Positions 26,031 through 54,284 of a stretch of 64,000 nucleotides of DNA are shown piece after piece. How positions within the stretch are numbered: position 1 is the first letter of the stretch; each line of letters opens with the position of its first letter. This DNA is from Cryobacterium adonitolivorans (GTDB taxonomy: Bacteria > Actinomycetota > Actinomycetes > Actinomycetales > Microbacteriaceae). Below the pieces are notes generated by a model. That model worked only from the letters and a program-made list of their open reading frames with translations, made no database searches and was not told where the DNA came from. The stretch lies in the NCBI RefSeq assembly GCF_004402695.1, contig NZ_SOFL01000033.1:65533-129532 (forward strand), read 5' to 3'. The translations under genes and the position numbers were made by a program.

Positions 26031-26098
26031 GTGCGGGCAAGGCGCCGGTATGCGGGTGGCGCGCGCCACCCGCATACTGGCGCGGGACCCGCATATTG
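26031..26098. repeat. Dispersed 64-bp palindrome, copy A
   Basis: TGCGGG-CAAGGCGCCGGTATGCGGGTGGCGC reads back on the other strand as GCGCCACCCGCATACTGGCGC-CCCGCA, with a 2-bp insertion at the centre. The copy lies between the convergent LacI and MFS genes, where it could end transcription from both sides. Confidence 0.8.
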
Positions 26099-26135
26099 CG
26101 CCTGGTGGCGACCTCAAGGCGGCGGCGGCGGCGGC

Positions 26136-27437
26136 TCAGGCGCCGGTCGTCTGTCCCGGCTGCCGCTCCATCTGGCGCCAGGCGCCTCCGGTGAGCGGGC
26201 TCAGTGTGACGAGCGTGTAGGCGACGGCGATGATGCCGAAGGACACCGCCAGGCCGATGGTGTCGGCGGCGATGCCGCCGAGCAGGGCGCCGAAGGGCAC
26301 GCCGGCCCAGGCGCCGGCGTTGATCAGGCCGAACACCCGGCCGCGCATGTGCTCGGGAACCCGTTCCAGCTCCACGGTGCCCAGGATCGGGTTGATCGCT
26401 CCGGCGGCCAGGCCGGAGAGTGCGGTCATGGCAACCAGCACGGGGAGCGGCGCACCGAGGGCGAAGGCCGCGCTTGACGGCCCGCCGGCCAGGGCGAAGC
26501 ACACCGTAAACGTCAGTCGGCGGGGAACGCGGTGGGCGACAAAACCGAAGGCGACGTTGCCCACCAGGGCGCATCCGCCCATGACCGCGACCAGGAGACC
26601 TAGCGAGGCCGCGCCGCCCAGGCGGTCGTTCGCGTAGAGGGGCAGCAGGGTTGCACCGCGGGCGGCGTCGAACAGATTGGTGATCAGAACCAGGCCCACG
26701 ATCAACCGCATCAGCGGGTCATGGATGACAAAACGGAAGCCCTCGGCCAGGTCGGCCCAGTAGGTGGTTCGGGGCGCGTCGGAGCGGTCCGGGCATGCTG
26801 GCTGGCGGGTGGCGGCGGGCATGGCGGCCACGAAGACCCAGGTGAGCAGCGCCGACACCGCGAAGGTGGCGGCGTTGACGAAGAGGGCCGCCATCGGCCC
26901 CACCAGTGCGACGAGCAGCCCGGCGACGGAGGCGCCGATCAGCCTCGCGAAGCGCTCCGACCCGTCGAGTAGACCGACGCTCCGCTCGAGGCGCACGCCC
27001 GCCCGGGCCGTGAGGCCCGGCAACATCACTCGCCGGGCGGTCTGCCCGGGGGTGTCGAGCAGGCCGCCGGCGAATACCAGCAGGAGAAGCGCCCAGAACG
27101 GCAGGCCGACGGTGAGCGCAAGCACTGGAATACTCAGCACGGTCGCTCCGCTCACCAGGTCGGCGACGATGGCCGCGCGGCGGTGGCCGACCCGGTCGAC
27201 GACGACCCCGCCGAGCGCGCCGCCGATCACCACCGGGGCGGTGGCGAAGAACGCGGCGATGCCCACCTCGACTCCCGAGCCGCCCAGGCCGAGCACGTAG
27301 AAGGGGATCGCGAACGCGGTGACCACGTTGCCCGTTTGGGAGATGGCGTGCGCGGTGAGCAGCGCCGAGAGGGAGCGAGTGGCGCGGCGGTCGCGCGGGG
27401 GCGCATCCGCGCTGGGCTTGGTCATCGGTGGGCCCAT
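26136..27437 (-). CDS. MFS transporter, 433 aa
   Basis: A twelve-segment major facilitator with the loop 2-3 motif GGVVVDRVGHRRAAIV and the helix-8/9 copy HRVPRRL. It resembles drug-efflux (DHA1, MFS_3/enterobactin exporter-like) members. Its ATG overlaps the stop of the ArsR-type regulator (TGATG), so the two are one operon and the transporter's substrate is probably the regulator's ligand. Confidence 0.9.
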   Translation of the reverse strand: MGPPMTKPSADAPPRDRRATRSLSALLTAHAISQTGNVVTAFAIPFYVLGLGGSGVEVGIAAFFATAPVVIGGALGGVVVDRVGHRRAAIVADLVSGATVLSIPVLALTVGLPFWALLLLVFAGGLLDTPGQTARRVMLPGLTARAGVRLERSVGLLDGSERFARLIGASVAGLLVALVGPMAALFVNAATFAVSALLTWVFVAAMPAATRQPACPDRSDAPRTTYWADLAEGFRFVIHDPLMRLIVGLVLITNLFDAARGATLLPLYANDRLGGAASLGLLVAVMGGCALVGNVAFGFVAHRVPRRLTFTVCFALAGGPSSAAFALGAPLPVLVAMTALSGLAAGAINPILGTVELERVPEHMRGRVFGLINAGAWAGVPFGALLGGIAADTIGLAVSFGIIAVAYTLVTLSPLTGGAWRQMERQPGQTTGA

Positions 27438-28024
27438 CAGGGGCGCCGGTAGGCCTGGTAGACCAGCACCACGGGTTCGGCGCCGTCGGTGCCGGCGGGG
27501 TCGTGGGCGGCACTCGTCTCAAGCCATCGGTCGACAAACGTCTCGAGCTCCGCGCGCATGGCGGTGAGTTCGGCGACGGTGAGACGAAGGCTGCGGTCGC
27601 CGCTAGTGGCGGCCCCCACCCATTCACGCGGCAGGGTCGGCGTCGCGTCGATGTAGTCGGTGTACCGGGCGGCATAGGCCTGGGCGATCGACTTCTGCAG
27701 GCTGGCCGACGCGGCGAGCTTGTCGGGATCGTCGAGCAGTTCGACGGGCTCCCAGCTGGTGAGCGCGGTGGTGGCCTGCCACCAGCGTTCGCGCTGGTCG
27801 CTGCTCTGCGCTTCGGCGGGCTCGATCAGGGCGATGGACGCCAGTTTGCCGAGGTGGTAGCTGATGGTGCCGGGGGCCTCGTCGATGACGTCGCCGAGTT
27901 GCGCCGCGGTCTGTGGTCCGCGCTCGCGCAGCAATCCCAGCAGGCGCAGCCGGGTCGGATGCGCGAGCACGCGCATGGAGGCGGCCGACGTGAGCGTGGT
28001 TCGCTGGGTGTCGCGGGGAGTCAT
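27437..28024 (-). CDS. ArsR/HTH_20-type winged-helix regulator, 195 aa
   Basis: The winged helix (residues about 10-85) has MRVLAHPTRLRLLGLLRERGPQTAAQLGDVIDEAPGTISYHL, the standard ArsR-type layout. No metal-binding cysteines are present. The C-terminal half is helical and may bind a small ligand. I placed the start at ATG 28024 (MTPRDTQR) because this gives the usual N-terminus. It is coupled to the MFS gene downstream. Confidence 0.85.
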   Translation of the reverse strand: MTPRDTQRTTLTSAASMRVLAHPTRLRLLGLLRERGPQTAAQLGDVIDEAPGTISYHLGKLASIALIEPAEAQSSDQRERWWQATTALTSWEPVELLDDPDKLAASASLQKSIAQAYAARYTDYIDATPTLPREWVGAATSGDRSLRLTVAELTAMRAELETFVDRWLETSAAHDPAGTDGAEPVVLVYQAYRRP

Positions 28025-28160
28025 GGTCCCGACAATATGAGAACAACGACCGTTGCGCAACACTTCTTGTGCAGTTGCCGACGGCTAGCGGCAGGTGCTC
28101 GCCGGGGCCGACGGGCTCGCACAAACAGCCAGTCCAGGGCGCGAGAGCTGAGGATAACTC

Positions 28161-30395: not shown

Positions 30396-30621
30396 GTCGC
30401 GGCCTGCTCTGTGCGTCGTTCGGGACGACTGCGCCTCGTCTGGCCGAATGCGCCAGCTATAGAGGGCGCACCGGGCCGCACGGGGCGCACTCAGCCCGCC
30501 CGACGCGGCGCGGCGGCGGCGAGCCGTGCCCTGATGGCGTACAGCTCGGGATTACGCCAGGGAGTCGTTCGGCCCGGTGCTGGAGCAGCCGGCGATGCGC
30601 CTGCGTAGTATCGTCGGAACA

Positions 30622-32603: not shown

Positions 32604-32710
32604 GGCTCGAGCGTAACGGCCCCGCCGGCGGGCCTTGCCGTTTGGTGAGGTCTGGGTGTCAATTGGTGCAACGGTACGCACAGTTGAGACGACGACGTCG
32701 GGAGTTGCTC

Positions 32711-34891
32711 ATGACGGGCAAAGGCACACAGGATTCGTCGAAAGGCACGGGCCGGGGCGGTGCGGAACAACGCAAGGCCGCGGCGTCGTCGGGCCCTCCG
32801 GCAAGTCAGCCCGAGAAGATCCGCAATGTGGCCCTGGTCGGCCGGTCCGGCTCCGGTAAGACCCTGCTCGCCGAAGCACTGCTGGCGGCCACGGGAGTGA
32901 TCACGCGGATGGGCACGATCGACGGCGGCAGCACGGTGAGCGACTCGGACCCGTCCGAGATCCACCAGCAACGCTCCGTGACGCTCTCGGTGCTGCCGCT
33001 GATGCTTGGTGAGGTGAAGGTGAACCTGCTCGACACCCCGGGCTACGCCGATTTTGTCGGCGACCTTCGGGCCGGGTTGCGGGCGGCGGATGCGGCGCTG
33101 TTCGTGGTTTCGGCCGTTGACGGTGTGGACGCGGCAACCACGACACTGTGGGCCGAGTGCGAGAGCGTCGGGATGCCGCGGGCCGTGGTGATCAACCGGA
33201 TCGATCATCCCCGGGCCGGGTACGAGGCGGTCCTGGCGGCATGCCAGGAGAACTTCGGCGCATCCGTGCTGCCGCTGGCCGTGCCGATCCGCAACAACGG
33301 GGCCATCACCGGCCTGCTGGGGCTGCTCTCCGGCATCGTCTCGGACTACAGCGCGGGAGGGACAAGTCCCACCCAACGCCCGGCCAGCGAGGCCGAACAC
33401 GCCGACGCGGAGCCGGCCCGGGCCACACTGATCGAGGGGATCATCGCCGAGAGCGAGGACGAAACCCTGATGGAGCGCTACCTCGGCGGCGCCGAGATCG
33501 ACCGGGACAGCCTCACCACCGACCTGGAGATCGCCGTGGTGCGCGGCTCGTTCTTTCCGGTGCTGGCGACCTCCGCGGAGACCGGAGTGGGCATGACGGA
33601 ACTGCTGGAGGTGCTCACCGGTGCGTTCCCCTCGCCGGTGGAGCGGGCGCTGCCGTCAGTGACGGACCTGGACGGCAAGCCGGTGGGGCCACTGACCTGC
33701 GACCCGGACGGGCCGCTGGTGGGCGAGGTCGTGCGCACCACCATCGATTCGTTCCTCGGCCGGGTTTGCCTGGTCCGCATCTTCTCCGGCACGCTGCGGG
33801 AGGACTCCATCGTGCACATCGGCGGCCACGGTCTCACCGACCGGGGCCATCAGGACCACGACAGCGACGAACGCATCACGCACCTGCAATCCCCGCTGGG
33901 GGCCACCCTGCGGCCGGTGCCGTATTGCGTTGCCGGGGACATCTGCGCGCTCACCCGGCTGACGGACGCCGAGACCGGAGACACCGTCTCCGACCGGGAG
34001 GCGCCGTTGCTGGTCGAGGCGTGGGAGATGCCGGAGCCGCTGATGCCGGTGGCGGTGCAAGGCGCGGCGCGCACCGATGATGACGCGCTGGCCAAGAACC
34101 TCGGCAAGATCGTGGCCGTCGATCCGACGCTCCGGGTGGAGCACAATGCCGAAACCCACCAGCTGGTGTTGTGGTGCATGGGGGAGGCGCACGCCGAGGT
34201 TGTGCAGGACCGGCTGCGCGCCCAGGGTGTGAAGTTGGAGACCGTCGAGGTGATCACGCCGCTGCGGGAGACGTTCGCCGCGCCCGCCGCCGCCCGGGGC
34301 CGGTACGTCAAGCAATCCGGCGGGCACGGCCAATACGCCATCTGCGAGATCGAGGTCGAACCCCTCCACCGTGGGGCGGGCTTCGAGTTCGTGAACAAGA
34401 TCGTCGGCGGGGTGATTCCCGGGCACTACATCGCCTCGGTGGAGAAGGGCGTGCAGGCGCAGATGCAGCGCGGCGTCTCGGCGGGGTTCCCGGTCGTGGA
34501 CATCCGGGTGACGCTGGTGGGCGGCAAGACCCACAGTGTCGATTCGTCGGATGCCGCGTTCCAGGCCGCCGGGGCTCTGGCGCTGCGGGAGGCCGCCGCG
34601 GGGACCCGGATCCAGCTGCTCGAACCCGTCTCTGCGGTCACGATCACCGTTCCGGACGCCTCCGTGGGCACGGTGATGACCGACCTGTCCACCCGCCGGG
34701 GCCACATGACCGGCACCACCTCGGTCGCCGATGAGCGCACGGAGATCAACGCCGAGATCCCGGATGCTGAGCTGCTGCGTTACGCGATCGAGCTCCGGGC
34801 GTTGACGGCGGGGAGCGGTCTGTTCCGCCGCAGCTACCTGCGGCACGAACCGGTGCCGCCTCATGTGGTGCCGGCGGCCGTGAGCGTCTGA
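32711..34891 (+). CDS. Elongation factor G-like GTPase (EF-G2 type), 726 aa
   Basis: The actinobacterial EF-G-like paralogue. The P-loop reads GRSGSGKT (residues 44-51) instead of the GHIDAGKT of true EF-G, and is followed by the G3 motif DTPGYADF (108-115) and G4 NRID. Domains II-V follow in order, with the domain IV segment QSGGHGQYAICEIEVEP and the final GHMTGT loop. A 35-residue charged extension precedes the GTPase. GGGAG lies 9 nt before the ATG. EF-G2 of mycobacteria binds GTP but does not replace EF-G; its role is unsettled. No ribosomal genes are nearby, so this is not the str-operon fusA. Confidence 0.9.
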   Translation: MTGKGTQDSSKGTGRGGAEQRKAAASSGPPASQPEKIRNVALVGRSGSGKTLLAEALLAATGVITRMGTIDGGSTVSDSDPSEIHQQRSVTLSVLPLMLGEVKVNLLDTPGYADFVGDLRAGLRAADAALFVVSAVDGVDAATTTLWAECESVGMPRAVVINRIDHPRAGYEAVLAACQENFGASVLPLAVPIRNNGAITGLLGLLSGIVSDYSAGGTSPTQRPASEAEHADAEPARATLIEGIIAESEDETLMERYLGGAEIDRDSLTTDLEIAVVRGSFFPVLATSAETGVGMTELLEVLTGAFPSPVERALPSVTDLDGKPVGPLTCDPDGPLVGEVVRTTIDSFLGRVCLVRIFSGTLREDSIVHIGGHGLTDRGHQDHDSDERITHLQSPLGATLRPVPYCVAGDICALTRLTDAETGDTVSDREAPLLVEAWEMPEPLMPVAVQGAARTDDDALAKNLGKIVAVDPTLRVEHNAETHQLVLWCMGEAHAEVVQDRLRAQGVKLETVEVITPLRETFAAPAAARGRYVKQSGGHGQYAICEIEVEPLHRGAGFEFVNKIVGGVIPGHYIASVEKGVQAQMQRGVSAGFPVVDIRVTLVGGKTHSVDSSDAAFQAAGALALREAAAGTRIQLLEPVSAVTITVPDASVGTVMTDLSTRRGHMTGTTSVADERTEINAEIPDAELLRYAIELRALTAGSGLFRRSYLRHEPVPPHVVPAAVSV

Positions 34892-34951: not shown

Positions 34952-35548
34952 ATGAGCACAGTGACCTGCGACATCACAATCTCCACCGACGGCTACGCGG
35001 CCGGTCCGGATCAGAGCCTGGAGCATCCGCTCGGTGAAGGCGGCGAACGATTACACCGCTGGATGTTCGAGCAGCCCGATGAGAACGCCGCGGAGATCGC
35101 GGCGATCCTGGAGTCGGGCGCCTACATCATGGGACGCAACATGTTCGGTCCCGGCCGAGGCGAGTGGGACGACGCGTGGACGGGGTGGTGGGGTGACGAG
35201 CCGCCGTACCACGCGCCGGTGTTCGTGCTGACGCACTCCCCGCGAGCGCCGCTGACCTTGGCGGGAGGCACGACGTTCACGTTCGTCACCGACGGCATCG
35301 AGTCGGCGATGGAGCAGGCGCGCGCCGCGGCGGGGGAGAAGAGCGTAGCGGTCGCCGGCGGGGCCTCGACGGTGCGGCAATACCTCGCGGCCGGGCTGAT
35401 CGGCGAACTGCGGCTGCACATCGCGCAGGTGGTGCAGGGCGCGGGGGAGCTGTTGTTAGAGGGATTGGACGACGTGAGGCTGGAACAGGTCAGCTCGGTA
35501 GAGAACGAGTTGGTCACCCATGTCGTCTACCGGGTGGCGCTGGGCTGA
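34952..35548 (+). CDS. Dihydrofolate reductase / RibD C-terminal family protein, 198 aa
   Basis: MSTVTCDITISTDGYAAGPDQSLEHPLGEGGERLHRW is the standard N-terminus of RibD_C-type DHFR-fold reductases. GAYIMGRNMFGPGRGEW and VAVAGGASTVRQYLAAGLIGELRLHIAQVVQG complete the NADPH-binding fold. The physiological substrate is not known; the family includes pyrimidine reductases and general NADPH oxidoreductases. GGGAG lies about 9 nt before ATG 34952. Confidence 0.88.
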   Translation: MSTVTCDITISTDGYAAGPDQSLEHPLGEGGERLHRWMFEQPDENAAEIAAILESGAYIMGRNMFGPGRGEWDDAWTGWWGDEPPYHAPVFVLTHSPRAPLTLAGGTTFTFVTDGIESAMEQARAAAGEKSVAVAGGASTVRQYLAAGLIGELRLHIAQVVQGAGELLLEGLDDVRLEQVSSVENELVTHVVYRVALG

Positions 35549-35595
35549 GGTTCTGGGCGGGGGCGGTGCTCCTCTGCCCGGGTGATGCGCGGGCG

Positions 35596-35660
35596 GTATG
35601 CGGGTGCCGCGCCGTTATGCGCCTGGCGCGCCACCCGCAGAGCGGCGCGTAGCCCGCACA
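35596..35660. repeat. Dispersed 64-bp palindrome, copy B (divergent)
   Basis: GTATGCGGGTG and GGCGCGCCACCCGCA match the core of the family, but the left arm is rearranged with a partial second copy of the arm (GCGCCGTTATGCG). It lies between the convergent RibD-like gene and the small minus-strand gene at 35715. Confidence 0.6.
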
Positions 35661-35714
35661 GCTCGCCAGCCGAGGCCGAGACAGCGATAGCCCATGCCCG
35701 GCCGGATCCCCGCG

Positions 35715-36023: not shown

Positions 36024-36044
36024 GATGAGGGCAATCCCCAGTCT

Positions 36045-36956: not shown

Positions 36957-37018
36957 GCCTCCAGACTAGGGACCATCGGCGATCGGACGCGGTGCTTGCA
37001 GGACGTTGTCTGCGCGGA

Positions 37019-39048: not shown

Positions 39049-39090
39049 GCTGTGGATGGTAGCCGCGGTGGGTGTCTGTGCGTAGAGCGC

Positions 39091-39154
39091 TGCGCGGGTG
39101 CGGCGCCGTTGTGCGGGTGGCACGCCACCCGCGTAACGGCGCCTACCCCGCATA
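39091..39154. repeat. Dispersed 64-bp palindrome, copy C
   Basis: GCGGCGCCGTTGTGCGGGTGGCACGCCACCCGCGTAACGGCGCC is nearly self-complementary and is flanked by TGCGCGGG and CCCCGCATA. It lies between two minus-strand genes, 43 nt upstream of the VOC gene start. Confidence 0.8.
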
Positions 39155-39292
39155 TCGGCTGGTCCGCCGGCTGGCACGCCGGAGTCACTGCGGTCCCTCC
39201 ACCCCGTGGATGAGAGCCGCGCGGCGCATACGGTCAGCCGGTGGCTCCGGGAGAACCCGCCGGCCTGACGCCGCATCCGTTCGCTGGTGGGA

Positions 39293-41165: not shown

Positions 41166-41248
41166 TGCGACTGCGGGAGGGGGCGCGGGTGCCGGGTGCC
41201 CGCTCCGGGGCGTCGCGCGGGCACGGGTGCCGGATGTTCCCTGGGCGT

Positions 41249-41312
41249 TGCGCGGGCAAGGCGCCGGTATGCGGGTGGCGCGCCACCCGCATAGCGGCGC
41301 CTACCCCGCATA
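41249..41312. repeat. Dispersed 64-bp palindrome, copy D
   Basis: AAGGCGCCGGTATGCGGGTG followed by GCGCGCC and the mirror CACCCGCATAGCGGCGCCT, with outer arms TGCGCGGG and CCCCGCATA. It is one of the best preserved copies and lies after the Nudix gene. Confidence 0.85.
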
Positions 41313-41359
41313 CCGCGATCCACGTCGATCGGGCGCGGGGGATCGGGGTCCGGCAGGGC

Positions 41360-42462: not shown

Positions 42463-42499
42463 AGGTGGCGCCACCTGTATAGCGCCTGACCCGCATACC
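42463..42499. repeat. Dispersed palindrome, copy E (half)
   Basis: GGTGGCGCCACCTGTATAGCGCCTGACCCGCATACC matches the centre and right arm only; the left arm has decayed. It lies in the 383-nt gap between divergent genes, which otherwise shows no gene. Confidence 0.6.
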
Positions 42500-42597
42500 G
42501 GCCGAAGCGCCCTGGCGGGTACGGATGTGGCTACCCCTTGAAGGGCAGCCGCCACGTGGATACGGTTCCAACGTGCACGTCCGACGAAGGAGGCCCC

Positions 42598-43579: not shown

Positions 43580-43851
43580 CTGTGACCCCCGGGGTGAAGA
43601 CTACCGGTGCGTGGAGTGGTGCGGGCGATTCGACAAGTGACCCGCGGCCGGGGGACGCGCCTCGGGTTGCGGCTTTCAGATCGTACGGTTGTCCACCGTC
43701 CGGTGCGGCAACGGAGGTCCTGCCGACCGCAATCGCGGCCGGTGCGATGTTGCGTTTACGGTACCCCCGGCATGGGTGGGGTGCAACGGTGGGCGGAGGC
43801 TGGGTGCGGCGGCGGCGGTTGCGGCGGGGCTTGGGAGGCGGGGAGTTGCGT

Positions 43852-43915
43852 TGTGCGGGTCAGGCGCCGCTGTGCTGGTGGCGCGCCACCCGCATAACGG
43901 CGCCCGACCCGCGCA
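43852..43915. repeat. Dispersed 64-bp palindrome, copy F, inside a 635-nt gene-free stretch
   Basis: GTCAGGCGCCGCTGTGCTGG and GGCGCGCCACCCGCATAACG with outer TGTGCGGGT and ACCCGCGCA. The whole interval 43580-44214 holds no other credible feature: it is GC-rich, with imperfect GCGGG and GCGTAGCG repeats and only shadow frames. Confidence 0.75.
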
Positions 43916-44214
43916 GCTCGGCAGGCGGCATCCGCCCGGCACGGATGGCGGATGGTCGGGAGGCTTCGGGCGAGGACAATGCAGCAGGCGTAGCGGCCGC
44001 GCGCGATGCAGGCGTTGCGGGCGCCCGCGGCTCAGGCGTAGCGTGGATCGGAAGGCTTGGGCGCAGCGCGAAGCGGGGCAGAGGCGCGGGCACGGCGAGG
44101 CGCGGGCACAACGGGGGACGCTGGGATGGAATGCGGCCGCGGCATCGCGTCGGGCGCGGCTGGTGCCGGTCGGGTGCGCGTCTCGCGGAGGCCGGCGCTC
44201 GAGGAGGAGCTGAG

Positions 44215-44697: not shown

Positions 44698-44724
44698 GAC
44701 CCCCAGCGCGGAGGGCCGCGAGGG

Positions 44725-44997: not shown

Positions 44998-45195
44998 CCG
45001 TCGAGTTTAGGCAGGTGTCGGCTGGGCAGATGCCGTGTGCCGGGGTCGCGGATCGGCCCGCACGTGCGGCAGCGGGAAACAATTCCCTGACCAGAGCGAA
45101 ATTGTGCTTGACTCAGTTGAGGATCCACCCAATGGAGTACCCGACGAAGCGCCAGAACGCCTCTGTGATCGGTCTGGTCGTTACCGCGGCCGCGG

Positions 45196-46452
45196 TCAGG
45201 GTGCCGTCGTGGCGGCAGCCGCGGTGCGGCCGCGCACCCGGGTGGCCAGCACCGGCGCGAAGAACACCACGAGCAGGCCTGCCAGCGGCACGAGGAGCAG
45301 CCCGTAGCGCAACTGGGAAAGGTCGGCGATGGCGCCGATGATGGGCGGCGAGAACAGGAAACCCAGCCGCAGCAGCCAGGCAACGATGGTCAGACCGGTG
45401 CCGGCACGGAAGCCGGGCAACTCGTCCGCGGCGTGCATTGCGGCCGGGATCAGTGTGGCGACGCCGAAGCCGGCCAGGCCGAAGCCCACGATGGTGCCCG
45501 GGATCGACGGGAACGCCAGGGCCGTGCCCATGCCCAGGAACACGATCGCGCCGCCGGTACGGGCCACGGCGCGCTGGCCGAACCTGTCGACGAGGCCGTC
45601 GCCGAGCAGCCGGCCGATGAATTGCATGCCCTGCAGGGCGATGAAGCCGAGACCGGCCACCAAAGCGGATGCGCTGAGCGCGTCGGAGAGGTAGATGGCC
45701 GACCACGACGCTCCGGCGTCCTCGACGACAGCGCCAGAGGCGGCGATCACCACGAGCGCGCCGAGCACCAGCCACTTTCCCCACCGGCCGCGGGAGAGGG
45801 TGGGCGTGGCAGCGTGCTGCTGGGGGGCGGTGGCCTCGGGTTCGAGGGGTTCGGGTCCAGCCAGGAGGAACCGGTAGCTATACAGCGCGAACAGGCTGAA
45901 GGTCACGGCGGACACGATGAGGTGCTGGCCGCGCGGCACATCAAGCTGGGCGGCCGCGGCGCCGAGGAGTCCGCCGGTGACAGCGCCGATGCTCCACACC
46001 GCGTGGAAGGAGTTAAGGATGGAGCGTTTGTAGAGCCGCTGCACGCGCAGGCCGTGCGAGTTCTGGGCGACGTCGGTGATGGAGTCCATCGCACCGGCGA
46101 GGAAGATGCCGGCGGCCAGGGCAGCCCAGCTGGGGGCGATTCCGGCCAGGATCAGGCCCACCGCGGTGAGCATCGTGGAGACCACGGCGACCCGCGACGA
46201 GCGGAACCGGCGGATGAGCATGCCCGCGGCGAGCCCGGCGATGAGGGCGCCGAGCGGGAACGCGGCGACGGCAAAACCGAATTCGGCGTTGCTGAGCCCG
46301 AGCTCGGATTTGATCCCGGGATACCGGGGGATCAGGTTGGCGAACAGGGCGCCGTTCGTGAAGAACAGCATGGCCACGGCGAAACGCGCGCGGCGCACGG
46401 CCACGTCGGGGCGGTCTGCGGTGCGTTCTGCGGAGCGGGCGGGAGGCGTCAT
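45196..46452 (-). CDS. MFS transporter (YbjJ-like), 418 aa
   Basis: Twelve hydrophobic segments, with ARFAVAMLFFTNGALFANLIPRYPGIKSELGLSNAEFG at the start and GLAAGMLIRRFRSSRVAVVST as the loop 2-3 motif. It resembles the YbjJ/fucose-permease-like group. The start is ATG 46452 (MTPPARS); the frame upstream to 46659 lacks membrane or family features. The substrate is unknown. Confidence 0.88.
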   Translation of the reverse strand: MTPPARSAERTADRPDVAVRRARFAVAMLFFTNGALFANLIPRYPGIKSELGLSNAEFGFAVAAFPLGALIAGLAAGMLIRRFRSSRVAVVSTMLTAVGLILAGIAPSWAALAAGIFLAGAMDSITDVAQNSHGLRVQRLYKRSILNSFHAVWSIGAVTGGLLGAAAAQLDVPRGQHLIVSAVTFSLFALYSYRFLLAGPEPLEPEATAPQQHAATPTLSRGRWGKWLVLGALVVIAASGAVVEDAGASWSAIYLSDALSASALVAGLGFIALQGMQFIGRLLGDGLVDRFGQRAVARTGGAIVFLGMGTALAFPSIPGTIVGFGLAGFGVATLIPAAMHAADELPGFRAGTGLTIVAWLLRLGFLFSPPIIGAIADLSQLRYGLLLVPLAGLLVVFFAPVLATRVRGRTAAAATTAP

Positions 46453-46607
46453 TGCGTCAGCGGACTTTCTGGTGTGGCGGTCGGTCGTGAGAGACCCGCC
46501 GGATCGGCGGGCGTGAGGCACGGGTTTCAAGCTTGGCACGGATGCCGGTGGCGGCGCACCCCGGCGGGCACGCTCGGGCATCCGGTTCGGTGGTGCAAGG
46601 ACCGAGC

Positions 46608-47162
46608 TCAGCCGACGGGCAGCTCGAAGATGGTTTCCAGGCCGTCCTCGTCGTCCCACTGCTCGCCCACCTCGACGAAGCCGAACTGGGTGATGAGGGC
46701 GCGGGAGGGGAGGTTGTCTGGACGGATGGTGGCCCGAACTACCGTGACGGACAGTTCGATGCGGGCGCGTTCGAGGAGCGCGGTGAGTGCGGCGCGGGCG
46801 TATCCCTGCCGACGGTATGCGGCATCCACGGCGTAGCCCACCTCGACCATGCCGGCGTCGTCCGGGGGTCCGTGGTAGCCGGCCTGGCCGACCGCGAGGT
46901 GCCGCGTCGGGTCGTAGATGACCCTCGTGACCCAGCTGGCGTCACCGGGAGTGACGGCGAGCTGCCGACTGCGGTAGCGCCAGGTGTTGGCGTTGACCGG
47001 TTCAATGAAGAAAGGGCTCAGCTCCACCGCGGCCTGCTCGTTGGCCAGGTCGAGGTCCTCCTCGGCGAGGGCGTCGATCGTGGCTGGGCTCAGCTGCACG
47101 AGGTGCACGGTGGGCGCCACAGTGGATGGCCATGGGTCGTCGAGCGGGGAGTTCGAGATCAA
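46608..47162 (-). CDS. GNAT-family N-acetyltransferase, 184 aa
   Basis: The acetyl-CoA-binding segment VGYAVDAAYRRQGYARAALTALLERAR contains the R/QxxGxG/A pattern, followed by VVRATIRPDNLPSRALITQFGFVEVG. It is of the RimJ/RimL-like subgroup. The start is unclear: TTG 47162 is preferred because AAGGA lies just before it, and a GTG further in (VAPTVHLVQL) is possible. Confidence 0.85.
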   Translation of the reverse strand: MISNSPLDDPWPSTVAPTVHLVQLSPATIDALAEEDLDLANEQAAVELSPFFIEPVNANTWRYRSRQLAVTPGDASWVTRVIYDPTRHLAVGQAGYHGPPDDAGMVEVGYAVDAAYRRQGYARAALTALLERARIELSVTVVRATIRPDNLPSRALITQFGFVEVGEQWDDEDGLETIFELPVG

Positions 47163-47559
47163 TGGGTCCTTCGAGAGGGTGCCGGATAGGGCTGATGGTG
47201 GTCGGGCCACGTGAGGTGCTGGTGGCGACCGCAGTGTCGGAAGCAGCCGTGGGCCGCTCTGAGCACGCGCACTTGAGGCTACTGCTCTGAGGGCACGTTT
47301 CTCGAGGAAATCCCCGAGTTCGCCCAAGCGTGCACCGGTGTGTCGGACCTCGCACCCCTCGCGACCCAGCCGGGCACCCACCGTGGCGCAACCGTGCAGG
47401 CGCCCTACCCGGATGCATCGCGGCCCACCCGCCTCCCCTCCGCGGCCCATCCGGCCCACCCGCCGGGCCTTCCCCCGAGCGGACGGGCTGCCTATGCTGG
47501 CAGCGTCGTTGACCGGCCGTCGTAGACGGCGGCCGCCGTCGGCATCGGGAGGAGCGACC
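47163..47559. other. Gene-free interval between divergent GNAT and monooxygenase genes
   Basis: About 400 bases without a convincing frame, repeat family member or RNA. It must hold the promoters of both flanking genes, but no clear -35/-10 pair was found. Confidence 0.5.
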
Positions 47560-47673
47560 ATGAGGAGCGAGAAACCGCCCCTTCCACTGGGCCCGACAGC
47601 GCTGGGCCTCCTCTCGTTCGCCGACGGCCACAATCTCCACGGGCTGCACACGGGCATGCGCGAACCCGCATGA
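47560..47673 (+). CDS. Short ORF coupled to the monooxygenase, 37 aa
   Basis: ATG 47560 follows a strong GGGAGGAG. The frame (MRSEKPPLPLGPTALGLLSF to GMREPA) ends with TGA overlapping the monooxygenase ATG by 4 nt. The monooxygenase has no Shine-Dalgarno of its own, so this ORF probably delivers ribosomes to it. It may be a leader or a real small protein; no family is recognised. Confidence 0.5.
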   Translation: MRSEKPPLPLGPTALGLLSFADGHNLHGLHTGMREPA

Positions 47674-49355
47674 CCGATTTCGACGTTGACCTTCTTGTCG
47701 TGGGGGCCGGCACCACCGGGCTCACCCTGGCGCTGCAGGCGGTCGACCACGGAGCCCGGGTGCGCATCGTCGAACGCCGGCCGGAGGCGTTCCGGCCGTC
47801 GCGGGCGATGGTGATGCATCCGCGCACCCTCGAACTGTTGCGTCCGCTGGGGGTGACGGATGCTCTGCTCGCGCTCGGCGACCCCTCACCGTCGGTGCAG
47901 CTGCACGTGCGCTCTCGGGTGGTGCCGGTGTCAGTCGAGAACCTCGATCTGCCCGGCACCGCGTTTCCCCACCTGCTGCTGGTTCGGCAGTCCGACGTGG
48001 AGTCGGTGCTGGCCGCGGCGCTCGCCGAGCGCGGAGTGGTGGTGCAGCGCGGTGCGGAGGTGGTGCGGCTGGCGCGGCTGCGGCAGGGCGGTGCCCGGGC
48101 CGTGCTGCGCACCACGGATGATGAGCCGGACGAAGACGTGCTGTGCCGGTACCTGGCCGGCTGCGACGGGCCCGCGAGCTTGGTGCGCCGGTCGGTCGGC
48201 GGCTTTCTCGGCGGCGACTACGACCAGGAAGTGGTGCTCGCGGACGTGGATCTGGGGCCCGCGGGCGCCGGGTCACGTGCGGGGGCGCCGGTGATGCTCG
48301 AGGCCGGGGTCGCCCATGTGGTCGTCGGGCGGCGCGGACTGGTGTTCCTCTTCAACATCGGCGAACGGGCCAGTTGGCGGATGCTCGCCACCCGACGGGC
48401 GGGCGACGATCGGCAGCCGTTCGGTCAGGCTGGGCCGCCGGTGCCGCAGGAGCAGCTGCAGCAGCTGTTCGACGAGGCCGGGCTGCCCGCGCAGATCACC
48501 GAGGTGGCCTGGTCGGCCCGGGTACGGCTGCAGCACCGGATCGCCAGCAGGTTCAGCCGCGGTCCGCTCTTCGTGGTCGGCGATGCCGCCCATGTGCACT
48601 CGCCGGCGGGCGCTCAGGGCATGAACGCCGGCATCCACGACGCCGTCAACCTCGGTTGGAAGCTGGCATTCGCCGCCGCGGCCGGCCAGCGGCTCCCCGA
48701 GGCGCCGGGCCCGGCGGGTGCCACTGTCCCGGCCGGCCCGCCCGGGACGCGAGCCGCGTTCCCCGGTTCGGCACTACTGGACTCCTACGCTCTGGAGCGT
48801 CGCCCCGCCGACCGGGCCCTGCTGCGCCTGACGCACACCATGTACTGGGCCGAGGCGAGCCTGCATCCGTTGGCGCAGCTCAGCCGGGCCGTGCTGGTGC
48901 CGCTGGCCGCGCCGCTGCTGCCGTGGTTCACCCGGCAACGTCGGCTCACCGCGGCGGGCATCCGTACCCTCTCGCAATTTCGGCTGCGGTACACGCACAG
49001 TCCGCTGTCGATGGAGGTGCGCGCGTCGCTCACCCCGGTGCGCGGCGGGCTGGCCAGGCGGGTGCTGCGGCCGGGCTCGAGGGTGGCCGACACCCTGGTG
49101 CGCTGCGAGGGACGCCGGGTGCGCCTGCACGAGTTGCTCGCGCGGCCGGGGGTGCACATCCTGCTGCAGGCCGATGCGCGAGAGGTGCCCGAGCGGATGC
49201 TGGGCACGCTGGTGCACAGCTATCGGCTTGACGACCGGCCCGGCACCGGCATGCTCGTCGTGCGGCCCGACGGCTACGTGGGGCTGCGGGCTCCGGTGCT
49301 CGACGAACAGCACCTCGCCGCCTGGTTGCGCCTGGTGGGGCTTCCCGTACGTTGA
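47670..49355 (+). CDS. FAD-dependent aromatic monooxygenase (PHBH/PheA-TfdB family), 561 aa
   Basis: The FAD-binding dinucleotide fold begins at residue 8 (LLVVGAGTTGLTLAL, Gly12-x-Gly14-x-x-Gly17). The second FAD motif GDAAHVHSPAGAQGMN is at 304-319, followed by NLGWKLAF. The C-terminal 110 residues form the thioredoxin-like domain found in phenol hydroxylase-type enzymes (LVVRPDGYVGLRAP). It hydroxylates aromatic or polyketide-like substrates using NAD(P)H and oxygen. A 37-codon ORF overlaps its start. Confidence 0.92.
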   Translation: MTDFDVDLLVVGAGTTGLTLALQAVDHGARVRIVERRPEAFRPSRAMVMHPRTLELLRPLGVTDALLALGDPSPSVQLHVRSRVVPVSVENLDLPGTAFPHLLLVRQSDVESVLAAALAERGVVVQRGAEVVRLARLRQGGARAVLRTTDDEPDEDVLCRYLAGCDGPASLVRRSVGGFLGGDYDQEVVLADVDLGPAGAGSRAGAPVMLEAGVAHVVVGRRGLVFLFNIGERASWRMLATRRAGDDRQPFGQAGPPVPQEQLQQLFDEAGLPAQITEVAWSARVRLQHRIASRFSRGPLFVVGDAAHVHSPAGAQGMNAGIHDAVNLGWKLAFAAAAGQRLPEAPGPAGATVPAGPPGTRAAFPGSALLDSYALERRPADRALLRLTHTMYWAEASLHPLAQLSRAVLVPLAAPLLPWFTRQRRLTAAGIRTLSQFRLRYTHSPLSMEVRASLTPVRGGLARRVLRPGSRVADTLVRCEGRRVRLHELLARPGVHILLQADAREVPERMLGTLVHSYRLDDRPGTGMLVVRPDGYVGLRAPVLDEQHLAAWLRLVGLPVR

Positions 49356-49367
49356 GCGGCCGACGGG

Positions 49368-49796
49368 TCAGCTGCGAACCGGTGCTTCGCAGGCTTCCAG
49401 CCGGAATATCGGGTGGTCGACCAGATCCGGCAGCTCGGCCAGGAACGGGCCGGCCCGACGGCCCAACTTCTCGAGGTAGTCGGCGGCGACCTGGTCGTGT
49501 TCGAGGCCACGCAGCTCGGTAGTCCGATACGGGTGGCGGCGCCATCGGACGCGCAGCTCGCAGCGTCCGGCGACCCGGAGGTTGCGCACCCACTGGGTTT
49601 CGCCGCGGCCGGCGATGACGTACCGCTCACCCTCGAATCGGAACGGTGCGACCGGGGTTCCGATCTCCCGGCCGCTGATGCGACCCCGCACGATGAGGGT
49701 GGGGGCACCGCAGGCCCGGGCGACCGGGTTGACGACGTGCACCATGAAGCGACTGGGCGGCAGATAACCGCGGCGGCGGGTGGGCGTGCTGCTCAA
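49368..49796 (-). CDS. Deazaflavin-dependent nitroreductase family (DDN-like), 142 aa
   Basis: A split beta-barrel of the DUF385/DDN type: VARACGAPTLIVRGRISGREIGTPVAPF and ERYVIAGRGETQWVRNLRVAGRCELRVR are the standard motifs. It would bind F420 and reduce quinones or nitro compounds. It is convergent with the monooxygenase, 12 nt apart. Confidence 0.9.
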   Translation of the reverse strand: MSSTPTRRRGYLPPSRFMVHVVNPVARACGAPTLIVRGRISGREIGTPVAPFRFEGERYVIAGRGETQWVRNLRVAGRCELRVRWRRHPYRTTELRGLEHDQVAADYLEKLGRRAGPFLAELPDLVDHPIFRLEACEAPVRS

Positions 49797-50105
49797 GGTG
49801 GGCCTCCGTTCAGTGTCCTCGGTGAGGCGCGCATCTGCCTCACGCCAGACACGGTACTGCCGCCGCCGGGACTGGGGAAGGTGCCCGTTGGGTCCACCAG
49901 TACCCCGCGCAAAATAGCCCGATCGGGGGTATAACTCGAGCAGACCTGTGCGCGGTCAGCGCTGCGCGGCAGCGAGGGGGCGGGTCACCGTGCAGGGGGT
50001 AGCGTCGGGGTCCGAGTGGATTTTCACTGCCGTCGCTGTGTAGGGTCATTCTCCACCGGCGTGCCTCACTCGCGCACAGACACCTGCACCACCCGAAAGG
50101 ACACC

Positions 50106-50147
50106 ATGCGCCGACGCATCCGAATCTCGATCGGGCAGCAAGAATGA
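50106..50147 (+). CDS. Leader ORF of 13 codons before the PAP2 gene
   Basis: ATG 50106 has AAAGGA at ideal spacing. The peptide MRRRIRISIGQQE ends in TGA overlapping the PAP2 ATG (ATGA). The PAP2 gene itself has only AGCAAGA before its ATG, so initiation there probably depends on ribosomes finishing this leader. Confidence 0.45.
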   Translation: MRRRIRISIGQQE

Positions 50148-50932
50148 GCGCCCCCTCGAATACCACGCGGGATCGCTTGCGTGCCCTGCACGAGAAGTTC
50201 ATCGTGCAGGACCGCTGGCGCACGGCCCGTGAACGCACGACTCTCTACCTGATGGCGGTGGCGCTCGTCGTCATCGGCGTGGCCGGCTTCCTCGTGATAC
50301 TCGCCGACGTCGTGCAGCGTGATGACGTGGCGAGCATCGATTCCCCTGTCAACGCCTGGCTCATGCAGAGCCGCACCGGAACCGTGACCGCGATCATGAT
50401 CGGGCTCGCGATCGGGTTCGGGCCGGTCGCGCTGCCCGTGGTGATTCTGGCAACCATCGTCCTGTGGTCATACCTCGCCAAGCACCTCTGGCGGCCGCTG
50501 CTGCTGGCGCTGGGCACGCTCACCGGGCTGGTTCTCGTTCAGGTGATCACCCGTCTCGTCGAACGCACCCGACCGCCCGTTGACCTCATGCTCTTCGGCG
50601 TCGACACCACCTATTCGTTTCCGTCCGGGCATGTGTCGGGTGCCACGAACTTCCTCCTGCTGCTCACCTATCTCATCTACTCGCGTCGAGCGGCGCGCCG
50701 GCGGGTGGCTGTGCTGGTGGGCGTGATTCTGGTGGTCGCCATCGGGCTGGCCGCGATCAGTCGGGTCTACCTGGGCTACCACTGGCCGACGGATGCGCTC
50801 GCATCGGTCTGCCTGGCTCTCGCGGTTCTCGGCGGGGTGATCGCGCTGGACACCTGGCGCACCGTGCGGGTGCGACCGAGCGGACGCGATGATGCCGCCG
50901 GGACGGACAGGCGCGAGGCGACGGCAGCGTAA
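50144..50932 (+). CDS. PAP2-superfamily membrane phosphatase, 262 aa
   Basis: The acid phosphatase/lipid phosphatase signature is complete: ERTRPPVDL, then SFPSGH, then SRVYLGYHWPTD, with six membrane segments. It likely dephosphorylates undecaprenyl diphosphate or phosphatidate at the outer face of the membrane. A basic N-terminal helix (residues 1-30) precedes the first membrane segment. Confidence 0.93.
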   Translation: MSAPSNTTRDRLRALHEKFIVQDRWRTARERTTLYLMAVALVVIGVAGFLVILADVVQRDDVASIDSPVNAWLMQSRTGTVTAIMIGLAIGFGPVALPVVILATIVLWSYLAKHLWRPLLLALGTLTGLVLVQVITRLVERTRPPVDLMLFGVDTTYSFPSGHVSGATNFLLLLTYLIYSRRAARRRVAVLVGVILVVAIGLAAISRVYLGYHWPTDALASVCLALAVLGGVIALDTWRTVRVRPSGRDDAAGTDRREATAA

Positions 50933-50934
50933 CC

Positions 50935-51324
50935 TCAGGGGGCGAGCCAGGCACGAACGACGTCGACGGCCGCGTCCCGTTTGTGCGCCAGGTCAGCCAG
51001 ATCGGTCACGAGCAGGCTCGCCCGAATATCGGAGTGCCAGGTGAGCAGGCCGTGCGGGTCGCCGGTGAAAGCGGATGCGGCATCCCTGTTCTCGGTGGTA
51101 GTCGCTCCCCGGTGCAGCACCAGTCGGACGCCGTCCTTACCCTGCGCGCTGATCGTGGCTTGATCGACCCCGTCAATCACGTAGCTGGGGGAGTTCCACT
51201 TGATGTGCTCCTGCACGGCGGGGTTGGCCTCGTGCACGAGCCGGCGCAGCGCCTCGATCACCGCCAGGCGCTCTGCGGGCTGCGCGGCGAGGAACTCCCG
51301 CACGGAGCGATGTCGATCGACCAT
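50935..51324 (-). CDS. DUF1801-family protein, 129 aa
   Basis: VIEALRRLVHEANPAVQEHIKWNSPSYVIDG and VRLVLHRGATTTE are the DUF1801 (YdhG/YdeI-like) core. It is only distantly like the DUF1801 member at 41783. Its stop lies 2 nt from the PAP2 stop (convergent). Function unknown. Confidence 0.85.
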   Translation of the reverse strand: MVDRHRSVREFLAAQPAERLAVIEALRRLVHEANPAVQEHIKWNSPSYVIDGVDQATISAQGKDGVRLVLHRGATTTENRDAASAFTGDPHGLLTWHSDIRASLLVTDLADLAHKRDAAVDVVRAWLAP

Positions 51325-51514
51325 GAACGGAGCGTACCGCCCGGGTGCATCCGCCGGCCCGGCCGTCCGGAAAAGGCATCATCCGTGCCCAGACATTTGA
51401 CGGCGGTGCACCCAAGCGAGTAGACACGAAGGAGCGGGCCGGGGCCCTAAGATTCGCAACACGGGCAGCGGCGCAGGCTTCCAGACTGCTCGGCTTCGCG
51501 ACGAAGGGAACCCC

Positions 51515-52492
<978 letters not shown>

Positions 52493-52532
52493 GCGTCCAC
52501 TTCGACGCCGCCTCGCCCCTGCCGACCGGCGG

Positions 52533-52629
52533 GTGGCATAACTCCTGCAATCGTCTCGGCTTCCGCCGGCCGGCCCCTAAATCCGCGGCGGCTCATCCGA
52601 TGCGTCAGAAATTGCAGGAGTTATGCCAC
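52533..52629. repeat. Inverted-repeat element (GCAGGAGTTATGC ends), copy 2
   Basis: GTGGCATAACTCCTGCAAT (52533-52551) and ATTGCAGGAGTTATGCCAC (52611-52629) are a perfect 19-bp inverted repeat around 59 nt. It shares the GCATAACTCCTGC ends and overall size with copy 1. It starts 41 nt after the aldo/keto reductase stop. Confidence 0.88.
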
Positions 52630-52799
52630 TCACGGACGGTCGCCAAGCGGTGAACAGTGTTCCGGCACGAGCGCGCAGCCTGCGAGGTGGCGACTATCGG
52701 CACCGGCAGAGTTTCTCCGGCGGATCCTTCGGTGGTGGGTTCTCCGGCGGAGGAGGCGGTGGTGGTGGCGGTGGCGGTGGTGGTGGTGCTGGCCGCTAG
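52623..52799 (+). pseudogene. Glycine-rich C-terminal fragment, 58 codons, starting inside the repeat element
   Basis: The right arm of the element supplies AGGAG and an in-frame ATG (52623). The frame ends SFSGGSFGGGFSGG plus a long glycine run and AGR, like the tails of TPM-domain or DUF2207 membrane proteins. The rest of such a protein is missing. The stop overlaps the convergent GNAT stop, so the 3' end is native. Most likely a truncated gene, possibly still translated from the element's start site. Confidence 0.5.
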
Positions 52800-53305
52800 A
52801 GCGGCTTGACCATCTCGATCTCCATGGCGCTGGAGTCCAGGACGTACTCCACCCGGTGCCCGGTCTCGGTGAAGCCCCGGCGCAGGTAGGCGGCGCGGGC
52901 GCGGGAATTGTCCTCGTGCACGTGCAGCGTCAGGCGGTCGCCCTCGCTGCGGGCCCACTCCTGGATCGCGAAGAGCAGCGCGTCGAAGATCCCTGCCGCG
53001 TGGCCGCGGTGGTCGGGCGACACGTACACGCCCACCAACAGTGCGCCGGTGGTCGCATCCGGAACGTAACCGCCCATGGTGCCCACCCAGCGTCCCGCAG
53101 CGTCGATCGCGACGAGGGCGATGCCGTGTTCGGCGGTGCCGCGGGCGGCGCGCATCCGCCATTCGCTGTCGGTGTGGCCGAGGGCGTCCTGCAGGGTCTC
53201 GCCGAACGCGATCGGGGTGTCCTCCAGCATCTCCAGGCGCAGCGCCCGAACCTCACGCCAGTCGTCCACCTGGGTGGCGCGGATGCTGAACCCCTCTGTC
53301 ATCAT
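52796..53305 (-). CDS. GNAT-family N-acetyltransferase, 169 aa
   Basis: The motif A region GALLVGVYVSPDHRGHAAGIFDALLFAIQEWA carries the acetyl-CoA loop, followed by HVHEDNSRARAAYLRRGFTETG. The N-terminus IRATQVDDWREVRALRLEMLED is typical of GNATs acting on small amines or protein N-termini. It is convergent with the glycine-rich fragment. Confidence 0.92.
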   Translation of the reverse strand: MMTEGFSIRATQVDDWREVRALRLEMLEDTPIAFGETLQDALGHTDSEWRMRAARGTAEHGIALVAIDAAGRWVGTMGGYVPDATTGALLVGVYVSPDHRGHAAGIFDALLFAIQEWARSEGDRLTLHVHEDNSRARAAYLRRGFTETGHRVEYVLDSSAMEIEMVKPL

Positions 53306-53348
53306 TCGCCGAGCTTACCCAGTCGCGCGCACGACGCCGAGGCAGGAG

Positions 53349-54083
53349 CTATGCCGCCCCGCGGGTGCTGACGGGGCGGGTGCTCGGGTAGCGGAACGAG
53401 AGCAGGTCGGGCAGGTCGAGCACCGAGCTGACCCGGCGGCTCTCCGGCACACCGTCGCGCGGAGCCGCCGCAACGAGAACGGCTTCCATGCCGTGTGCTC
53501 GGGGGCCGTCGAAGTCGGCGTCCCAGGTGTCGCCGACGAAGATGACCCGCGCCGGATCCGCATCCGCCCGGTCGAGGGCCGCCCGGTAGATCGCCGAGTG
53601 GGGCTTGCGAAACCCCACCTCGAGCGACGTCACGATATTGGCGATGAGGTCGGTGGCGCCCATGGCCGCCAGTTGGCGGGGCACGACGGATGCGCTGTGC
53701 GTGTTCGACACGATGGTGAGTGTGAAGGTCTGGCCCAGTTCCCTCAGCGTCAGGGCCATGCCGGGGATCAGCACCACCCCGCGCTCCCAGTCCGCCATGT
53801 TGCTCTCGGCGCCGGCGGCGATCTCGGTGGCGTCGGGTTCGCGGCCGAGCAGCCGCACGATGGCGCGCCGCGACAGCTCCTCCATGGTGAACTCGCGGTG
53901 GTCGACGTCGGACTCGGCGTTGAGCTGGTGGAAGGCGTCCAGCCAGGCGTCGGCGGTGTCCTGCTCGGTGCCGGCCGCACCGAAGGACCGCATGCTCGCG
54001 TGAGTGTCGGCGTAGCCCTGCCCGGCCCGGGAGTCCGCATAGTTGACCAGGGTGCCGAAGAAGTCTAGGAACAGATGCCGCAT
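53349..54083 (-). CDS. HAD-superfamily hydrolase, 244 aa
   Basis: A Rossmann-like HAD fold with nucleophile Asp7 in LDFFGTLV, the motif II Ser/Thr in IVSNTHS, Lys in GFRKPHSAIY and motif IV VGDTWDADFDG. The residue two after the nucleophile is Phe rather than Asp, as in haloacid dehalogenases (DAYGT) and unlike phosphatases. A helical cap lies between residues 15 and 90. The start is ATG 54083; an ATG two codons earlier is equally possible. Confidence 0.88.
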   Translation of the reverse strand: MRHLFLDFFGTLVNYADSRAGQGYADTHASMRSFGAAGTEQDTADAWLDAFHQLNAESDVDHREFTMEELSRRAIVRLLGREPDATEIAAGAESNMADWERGVVLIPGMALTLRELGQTFTLTIVSNTHSASVVPRQLAAMGATDLIANIVTSLEVGFRKPHSAIYRAALDRADADPARVIFVGDTWDADFDGPRAHGMEAVLVAAAPRDGVPESRRVSSVLDLPDLLSFRYPSTRPVSTRGAA

Positions 54084-54220
54084 GACCACAGCTTGGCAGG
54101 GTGTGGGGCATCGTCCGGTTAACGACCCGGTGCGGCCTCCGCAATCGGCGGGGGTCAGGCGCGGTGGTGAGTCCGCAGATCCGCGGGCAGGCGCCGTTGC
54201 GATGCGGGGGAGCGTGCCGT

Positions 54221-54284
54221 TGTGCGGGTCAGGCGCCGCTATGCGGGTGGCGCGCCAGGCGCATAACGGCGCCTACCCCGCACA
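54221..54284. repeat. Dispersed 64-bp palindrome, copy G
   Basis: GTCAGGCGCCGCTATGCGGG then TGGCGCGCCA and GGCGCATAACGGCGCCTACC, outer arms TGTGCGGG and CCCGCACA. A partial left arm (GCGGGCAGGCGCCGTTGCGATGC style) lies just before it at 54184-54208. It sits between divergent HAD and LLM genes. Confidence 0.85.

What the first reader, a model, noticed from the sequence alone, without database searches (positions are those of the whole stretch)
26031..54284. Family of seven dispersed 64-bp GC-rich palindromes
Copies A-G (26031, 35596, 39091, 41249, 42463, 43852, 54221) share arms reading TGCGGG..AGGCGCCG.TATGCGGGTGGCGC and their mirror image. All are between genes, in convergent, tandem and divergent contexts alike, so termination alone does not explain them. 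Arms vary by paired substitutions in places (for example GTTGTGCGGG opposite CCCGCGTAAC in copy C), hinting at selection for pairing. They behave like REP elements, but no RAYT-type transposase is in the window and none follows the usual actinobacterial repeat families I know.
Basis: seen in the sequence. Interest (0 to 1): 0.75.

Follow-up and report, generated by a model that had tools for sequence, protein, structure and literature searches.

The report
Four-box palindromes scattered between bacterial genes
Cryobacterium and related bacteria carry many 72-letter mirror-image DNA sites between their genes, each built from four copies of one short word whose spelling differs between families, which looks like a repeat class with an unknown partner protein rather than a classical REP element.

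Summary
The repeat is real. Six of the seven copies are intact ~72-bp near-palindromes; the seventh (42463) is a decayed half element. The host is Cryobacterium. The own genome has at least 14 full copies; 30 of 37 same-genus genomes have hits and 0 of 23 genomes of other families. The cited 'paired substitution' in copy C is two single changes, and 13 own copies show no covariation; across species covariation is strong. There is no RAYT (0 of 57 same-genus genomes), no GTAG/CGTC tag, no consistent target duplication, no T-tract. A sequence-blind palindrome scan showed several families sharing one design: each 36-bp arm holds a ~7-bp box twice, 19 bp apart, and is then mirrored. Box spelling differs between families and genera, while boxes within one element mostly agree. 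A second family (~49 copies in this genome) sits mostly just after stop codons. G-T and A-C mismatches are equal on the transcribed strand, so constraint seems to act on DNA; old orthologous copies keep their boxes (partly circular). Best reading: REP-like dispersed sites for an unidentified tetrameric DNA-binding protein, probably transposase-derived.

The parts
26026..26099 (.). Copy A, family I palindrome (74 bp, two extra bases at the centre)
   Evidence: N22 and zongtaii have an element next to the same right-hand gene, the left flank differs
35593..35664 (.). Copy B, family I palindrome
   Evidence: absent at the orthologous gap of N22 and zongtaii
39087..39158 (.). Copy C, family I palindrome
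   Evidence: N22 and zongtaii have an element after the same left flank, but the right flank differs and the zongtaii one is not the closest copy
41245..41316 (.). Copy D, family I palindrome
   Evidence: copies between the same two genes in N22, zongtaii and lactosi
42463..42502 (.). Copy E: decayed right half only, not a full element
   Evidence: better kept half at the orthologous gap of N22
43848..43919 (.). Copy F, family I palindrome
   Evidence: copy between the same genes in zongtaii, absent in N22, lactosi and G007
54217..54288 (.). Copy G, family I palindrome, between HAD-hydrolase and luciferase-like genes
   Evidence: one to three elements at this site in all six genomes compared
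30424..30495 (.). Family III palindrome (TGCGCC boxes), same 72-bp four-box design, 25 of 36 paired
60933..61004 (.). Fourth type (GTTGCCCC boxes), 28 of 36 paired, same design; single copy in the sequence scanned

Best explanation
These are REP-like interspersed DNA elements with a four-box design: one ~7-bp box twice in direct orientation 19 bp apart, then the mirror image, 72 bp in all. Shown: the design, its repetition with different box words in several families and genera, intergenic placement, shared presence at orthologous sites of some species, and boxes that stay constant while spacers vary. Inferred: the boxes are contacted four at a time by a tetramer (or two dimers) of a sequence-specific DNA-binding protein whose specificity differs between families; the elements spread in the past as minimal 'two ends back to back' units mobilised by that protein or its transposase ancestor; surviving copies are now kept at gene ends, plausibly as bound roadblocks or insulators between neighbouring transcription units. 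The acting protein and the present function are not identified.
For: Best self-match offset within arms is exactly 19 in family I (0.60, control 0.34), II (0.53, 0.26), III (0.58, 0.29) and in 18 loci from 17 genomes of other genera (0.52, 0.28). Box 1 matches its own box 2 at 70.1% against 45.7 +- 1.9% for box 2 of other elements, 72 representatives. A hairpin alone does not need a direct repeat. Between 24 orthologous pairs high-information columns differ at 13 of 912 letters, low-information columns at 131 of 432. Element identity 0.89 against flank 0.50. G-T to A-C mismatches on the transcribed strand 47:46 (family I, 30 tandem copies) and 47:58 (family II, 30 tandem copies), so no sign of RNA-strand wobble tolerance. 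0 of 91 in genes. Family II: 21 convergent, 21 tandem, 1 divergent of 43; 53 of 63 stop distances under 50 nt. Copies between the same two genes are each other's closest copies in 7 of 7 pairs among own genome, N22 and zongtaii and in 5 of 7 between G007 and lactosi. Copy number runs from none found to about 50 per genome.
Against: No cognate protein was found. The column contrast is partly circular: columns were sorted by conservation in the same 78 copies, and random non-orthologous pairs also differ little there (2.0% against 55%). The 24 orthologous pairs were chosen from 105 as mutual best and at least 60/72, which favours conservation, and they share sites; over all 40 two-flank pairs only 17 rank first, and 0 of 8 with G023. 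Lost or indel-bearing copies are under-counted by ungapped scans (A and E were missed by the full scan). No clean insertion was caught and no consistent target duplication exists, so past mobility is inference. Family I placement is only weakly biased to gene ends. In family I an offset of 26 scores nearly as high as 19 (0.56). Some elements break the box rule, e.g. L117 and L119. 7 of 37 same-genus genomes have no family I hit, so it is not essential.
Confidence: 0.5

Rival explanations
1. Bidirectional RNA terminators or mRNA 3'-end hairpins: the transcribed palindrome folds into a very stable hairpin that ends transcription or protects mRNA ends.
For: Hairpins of -43 to -61 kcal/mol for the six intact copies; family II mostly within 50 nt of stop codons and 21 of 43 between convergent genes; family I enriched between convergent genes.
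Against: No T-run after the elements: TTTT within 20 nt in 1 of 30 tandem family I copies, TTT within 15 nt in 0 of 30 tandem family II copies; no excess of G-T over A-C on the transcribed strand; direct box repetition and family-specific box words are not needed for a hairpin; 25 of 91 family I copies lie between divergent genes.
Confidence: 0.25
2. Remnants of a non-autonomous transposon (minimal MITE: two 36-bp ends back to back), now neutral.
For: Variable copy number; local multiplication (1 to 3 copies at site G; two neighbours 71 of 72 alike in G007); dispersed; different families per genome; decayed halves exist (copy E).
Against: Boxes kept in old copies (partly circular); in 464 kb 51 places score 45 bits or more and 7 are weaker (my grouping; half elements are under-counted); no target duplication; no gene flanked by solitary inverted arms in 1.66 Mb (my reading).
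Confidence: 0.11
3. Regulon operators: sites of an ordinary transcription factor (one paralogue per family).
For: Palindromic, box-conserved, DNA-level symmetry.
Against: Placement is not promoter-biased: convergent pairs are enriched for family I, and family II has 1 divergent site of 43. 72 bp with four boxes is long for an operator (general knowledge).
Confidence: 0.08
4. Recombination or module-exchange sites (dif-module or attC-like) that delimit mobile gene blocks.
For: DNA alignments of the window with relatives end at copies A and C. Pooled over the 12 comparisons, broken adjacencies with gaps of at least 90 bp carry an element in 11 of 51.
Against: In the same pool conserved adjacencies carry one in 38 of 276 and one-orthologue adjacencies in 50 of 346, so the excess is small and the rows are not independent (my sums).
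Confidence: 0.04
5. Classical REP/REPIN elements moved by a RAYT (Y1) transposase.
For: Intergenic palindromes, many copies.
Against: PF01797: 0 of 57 same-genus genomes and 0 of 36; no GTAG or CGTC end.
Confidence: 0.02

Closest known systems
REP / BIME elements (GTAG-tagged, RAYT-associated)
   Same: Dispersed, extragenic, palindromic, many copies, often near genes
   Different: 72 bp rather than 20-40 bp (size from the PMC3733652 abstract in the listing), four direct/inverted boxes at 19 bp, no GTAG tag, no Y1 transposase in 57 genomes
CGTC-tagged REPs
   Same: Palindromic repeats without a dedicated transposase (PMC3733652, passages)
   Different: No CGTC end; stems of 8-9 bp there against 30+ bp here; the five host phyla named in the passages do not include Actinobacteria
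REPINs (recalled; PMC3116915 seen in listing only)
   Same: Unit made of two inverted halves; populations inside genomes
   Different: No two copies identical in the regions compared; top pair 63 of 72 in the own genome, mean 56-60 of 72; no RAYT
MITEs
   Same: Short inverted-repeat elements between genes
   Different: No internal sequence, no consistent target duplication, no parent transposon seen in 1.66 Mb
Intrinsic terminators
   Same: GC-rich hairpin after stop codons (family II especially)
   Different: No T-tract, no wobble preference, direct box duplication

Membership tests
REP (RAYT-associated) | Y1/HUH (PF01797) transposase in the genome or genus | tested here: not met
   0 of 57 same-genus genomes; controls positive in 5 of 14
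REP (RAYT-associated) | Conserved GTAG (or CGTC) tetranucleotide at one end | tested here: not met
   End columns G/C/G/variable in 78 copies, no such tag
REP (RAYT-associated) | Extragenic, many copies, palindromic | tested here: met
REPIN | Abundant identical master sequence within a genome | tested here: not met
   78 family I copies in six genomes: no identical pair; the closest (71 of 72) are neighbours in G007. Only parts of those genomes were held
MITE | Target-site duplication of fixed length | tested here: not met
   77 copies, no offset/length stands out; best z-scores rest on 2-3 copies
MITE | Related autonomous element with the same ends | tested here: inconclusive
Intrinsic terminator | T-tract after the stem | tested here: not met
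   generic scan of 35000-54500 lists none at the copies
Intrinsic terminator | Position downstream of genes | tested here: inconclusive
   Family II mostly met; family I weak, 25 of 91 divergent
Known Rfam RNA | Match at the gathering score | tested here: not met
   No match in the window
attC / dif modules | Sites delimit exchanged gene blocks | tested here: inconclusive
   11 of 51 broken, 38 of 276 conserved, 50 of 346 one-orthologue gaps carry an element, pooled and not independent

The most novel reading that the evidence does not exclude
A Microbacteriaceae-wide class of dispersed four-box palindromes, in which one box word is used four times per element and differs between families and genera, read by a diversifying family of tetrameric DNA-binding proteins: a REP-like system without RAYT that marks and insulates gene ends at the DNA level.
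Probability: 0.35. Interest if true: 0.82.

Novelty: new variant of a known kind. Interest (0 to 1): 0.62.

Why it matters
REP-type repeats are usually explained by RAYT transposases. Here is a class in one actinobacterial family with another architecture, no RAYT in the genus, and box words that change while the geometry stays fixed. It points to an unknown protein family with swappable specificity and gives a natural series of site/protein pairs to test. RepRanger's default palindrome maximum of 32 nt (PMC12306157, passage) would, as I read it, not take in such elements.

Tried and rejected
Module-exchange idea: window-to-relative alignments end at copies A and C. Pooled over 12 comparisons, broken gene adjacencies carry elements slightly more often than conserved ones (11 of 51 against 38 of 276, gaps of at least 90 bp, my sums), too little to build on. 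On re-checking I raised this rival from 0.02 to 0.04 and lowered two others by 0.01 each. RAYT: none. Target duplications: none consistent. Clean empty sites: copy B is absent in N22 and zongtaii, copy F in N22, lactosi and G007, but the gaps differ by 81-417 bp, more than the element (the output was cut and I saw part of it). Compensatory change: none over shuffles within own copies; between 24 orthologous pairs 5 pairs changed on both sides keeping Watson-Crick against 58 broken on one side, about 2.7 expected by chance. The 15-bp core with up to 2 mismatches is no commoner in the own genome than its reversed control (58+51 against 50+53), so loose patterns are useless; in G024 and G031 the 22-bp core is no commoner than control although the model finds many copies. 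Origin/terminus pattern: in the closed genome G007, whose first ORF I read as dnaA (no family search), the listed core sites leave about 0.54-2.68 Mb nearly empty (two sites) and are dense at 2.79-2.87 Mb; listed family II sites of G023 are spread round the chromosome. I did not build on it. Parent transposon: no gene flanked by solitary arms. Samples of G016 and G017 (360 kb, no family I hit) gave no palindrome family, one single palindrome. Literature: searches listed no paper that I recognised as describing these repeats (only the listed rows and abstract starts seen); passages seen in PMC3733652, PMC7381226 and PMC12306157. Most subscription papers are not held.

Rows dropped before counts: copy A (74 nt) left out of A2 (13 of 14 own copies) and of the TSD test; E left out of all alignments but; A3 holds 32 chosen loci, of which one search used the 28 of the genus (L052 there is one base out of register); L068 and L070 left out of A3; family II model 11 of 12 cluster members, family III model 8 of 11; searches used 24 of 105 orthologous pairs. 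The 40 stretches behind one search were chosen from top-scoring family II hits of the own genome and G023, or round family I copies; the 12 family II sites found earlier were 9 tandem, 2 divergent, 1 convergent. Species representatives are best model hits, which favours pairing and perhaps the 19-bp design. Only 150 of 7541 first-look candidates were scored, 82 per genome, 124, so copy numbers and tallies are lower bounds. The gene caller is my own codon-bias script; contexts of copies B and F differ.
Full report
Observation. The repeat exists at the stated places. Six copies (A, B, C, D, F, G) are intact palindromes of 72-74 bp, somewhat longer than the 64 bp given. Copy E is a decayed right half; N22 has a better kept half in the gap between the same two orthologous genes. 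Consensus arm: GCGnTATGCGGGTnAGGCGCCGTTATGCGGGTGGCG, then its mirror image.

Host and spread. Named Cryobacterium loci (sp. N22, C. zongtaii, C. lactosi) align with the window at about 80-93% over stretches of 1 to 8 kb; contig lengths identify handles G073, G079 and G070 with them. That the other same-genus handles are Cryobacterium follows from this. The own genome has at least 14 full copies on 5 of 58 contigs. Of 60 genomes searched 30 have hits: 30 of 37 of the genus (two only near E 0.001), 0 of 23 in other families. The exact 22-bp core occurs in 22 stretches of the GTDB r220 collection, all from those three Cryobacterium (the tool may leave out records near the window). In a draw of 249 Microbacteriaceae genomes 10 have hits: two Cryobacterium and 8 genomes of 7 other genera, the latter weaker than the own copies.

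Pairing. Within the 13 aligned own copies 82.4% of pair cells are standard pairs, no more than after shuffling (83.3%). Five of 13 break the same two inner pairs. Across one best copy from each of 28 genomes Watson-Crick pairing is 79.3%, against 65.7 +- 0.9% shuffled and 24-40% when slid. So symmetry is kept over long times but not copy by copy.

DNA or RNA. In copies between tandem genes, oriented by transcription, G-T and A-C mismatches are equal (47:46). A functional RNA hairpin should tolerate G-U better than A-C. Family II gives 47:58. There is no T-tract. This argues for constraint on double-stranded DNA, with the reservation that it rests on about 100 mismatches per family.

Four-box design. 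A sequence-blind scan for 72-bp palindromes (at least 24 of 36 pairs) in 1.56 Mb found 129, against 3 in shuffled sequence. Besides family I (74) there were family II (12; arm AACTGTTGCC..CGGACAATTGCGCCCGGCG), family III (11; TGCGCCCCGTGTGGCTGGATGCGCCAGCTA) and a single further type in the window. In each family the arm matches itself best at an offset of exactly 19, as in 18 loci of other genera, and box 1 of an element agrees with its own box 2 much better than with box 2 of other elements (70.1% against 45.7 +- 1.9%; L117 and L119 are exceptions). Conserved columns stand at similar registers in families I to III. A model of family II finds 17 of 25 genomes of the genus and 1 of 15 of other families, with about 49 copies in the own genome (98 matches on both strands), and 41 of 249 Microbacteriaceae genomes (two of them Cryobacterium) in 24 of 85 genera. 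Family III: 17 of 25 of the genus, 0 of 15 others.

Place. Family I: 91 full or half elements in six genomes, none inside a called gene; convergent gaps are over-represented (30 against 18.5 expected). Median distance to a stop is 90 nt, to a start 172 nt. Family II: of 43 sites 21 convergent, 21 tandem, 1 divergent, with 53 of 63 stop distances under 50 nt; with 12 earlier sites the total is 22 convergent, 30 tandem, 3 divergent of 55.

Age and constraint. Copies between the same two genes are each other's closest copies in 7 of 7 pairs among the own genome, N22 and zongtaii and in 5 of 7 between G007 and lactosi, but in 17 of 40 such pairs overall and 0 of 8 with G023. Site G holds one to three elements in all six genomes. 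In 24 selected orthologous pairs high-information columns differ at 1.4% and low-information columns at 30%; since columns were ranked on the same copies this shows that spacers had time to change while boxes did not, but it is not an independent test. Element identity is 0.89, flank 0.50. Matrix scores are bimodal, with no full-length hit between 15 and 45 bits. A gapped search of 464 kb has 51 places at 45 bits or more and 7 weaker ones (my grouping). Ungapped scans miss copies with indels, as A and E show, so decay is under-counted. No two copies are identical; the closest pair (71 of 72) are neighbours in G007, so the last multiplication seen is local.

Mechanism. Repetition of one box in direct and inverted orientation with fixed spacing, box words that differ between families, and constant boxes point to a tetrameric, sequence-specific DNA-binding protein. 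Variable copy number, local multiplication and absence in some species point to an originally mobile element; two transposase ends back to back would look like this. Persistence of old copies points to a present role, most likely at gene ends. The protein, the mobility and the role are inferred. Contradicted or weakened: RAYT REPs and plain intrinsic terminators. Module-exchange sites get little support.

Known or new. It resembles REP elements in habit but fails two defining features tested here (Y1 transposase, GTAG/CGTC tag). CGTC REPs also lack a dedicated transposase according to PMC3733652 (passages), but are short and tagged. I file it as a new variant of REP-like repeats, not as a REP family member.

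Noticed in passing
window 30424-30495: Family III four-box palindrome (TGCGCC boxes), a different sequence family from the reported one.
   Followed up: yes
window 60933-61004: A fourth type with GTTGCCCC boxes, between convergent gene calls, single copy in the sequence scanned.
   Followed up: partly
L028 / own genome C32:38053-38175: Several 19-bp family I units in direct tandem leading into a palindrome, suggesting that the 19-bp unit can multiply.
   Followed up: partly
G007:C1, listed core sites: Family I nearly absent from about 0.54 to 2.68 Mb and dense at 2.79-2.87 Mb, whereas the family II sites listed for G023 are spread round the chromosome.
   Followed up: partly
own genome, family II (e.g. 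C35:102419, C25:45650, C48:75665): About 49 copies of family II, mostly placed right after stop codons in the sites examined.
   Followed up: yes
window 42226-42535 and N22 (G073:C38): A half element (copy E) is shared with N22 between the same divergent genes, better kept in N22; whether half sites are functional is open.
   Followed up: partly
window 32642-34891: EF-G-like GTPase (749 aa; Pfam EFG_III, EFG_IV, EFG_C).
   Followed up: no
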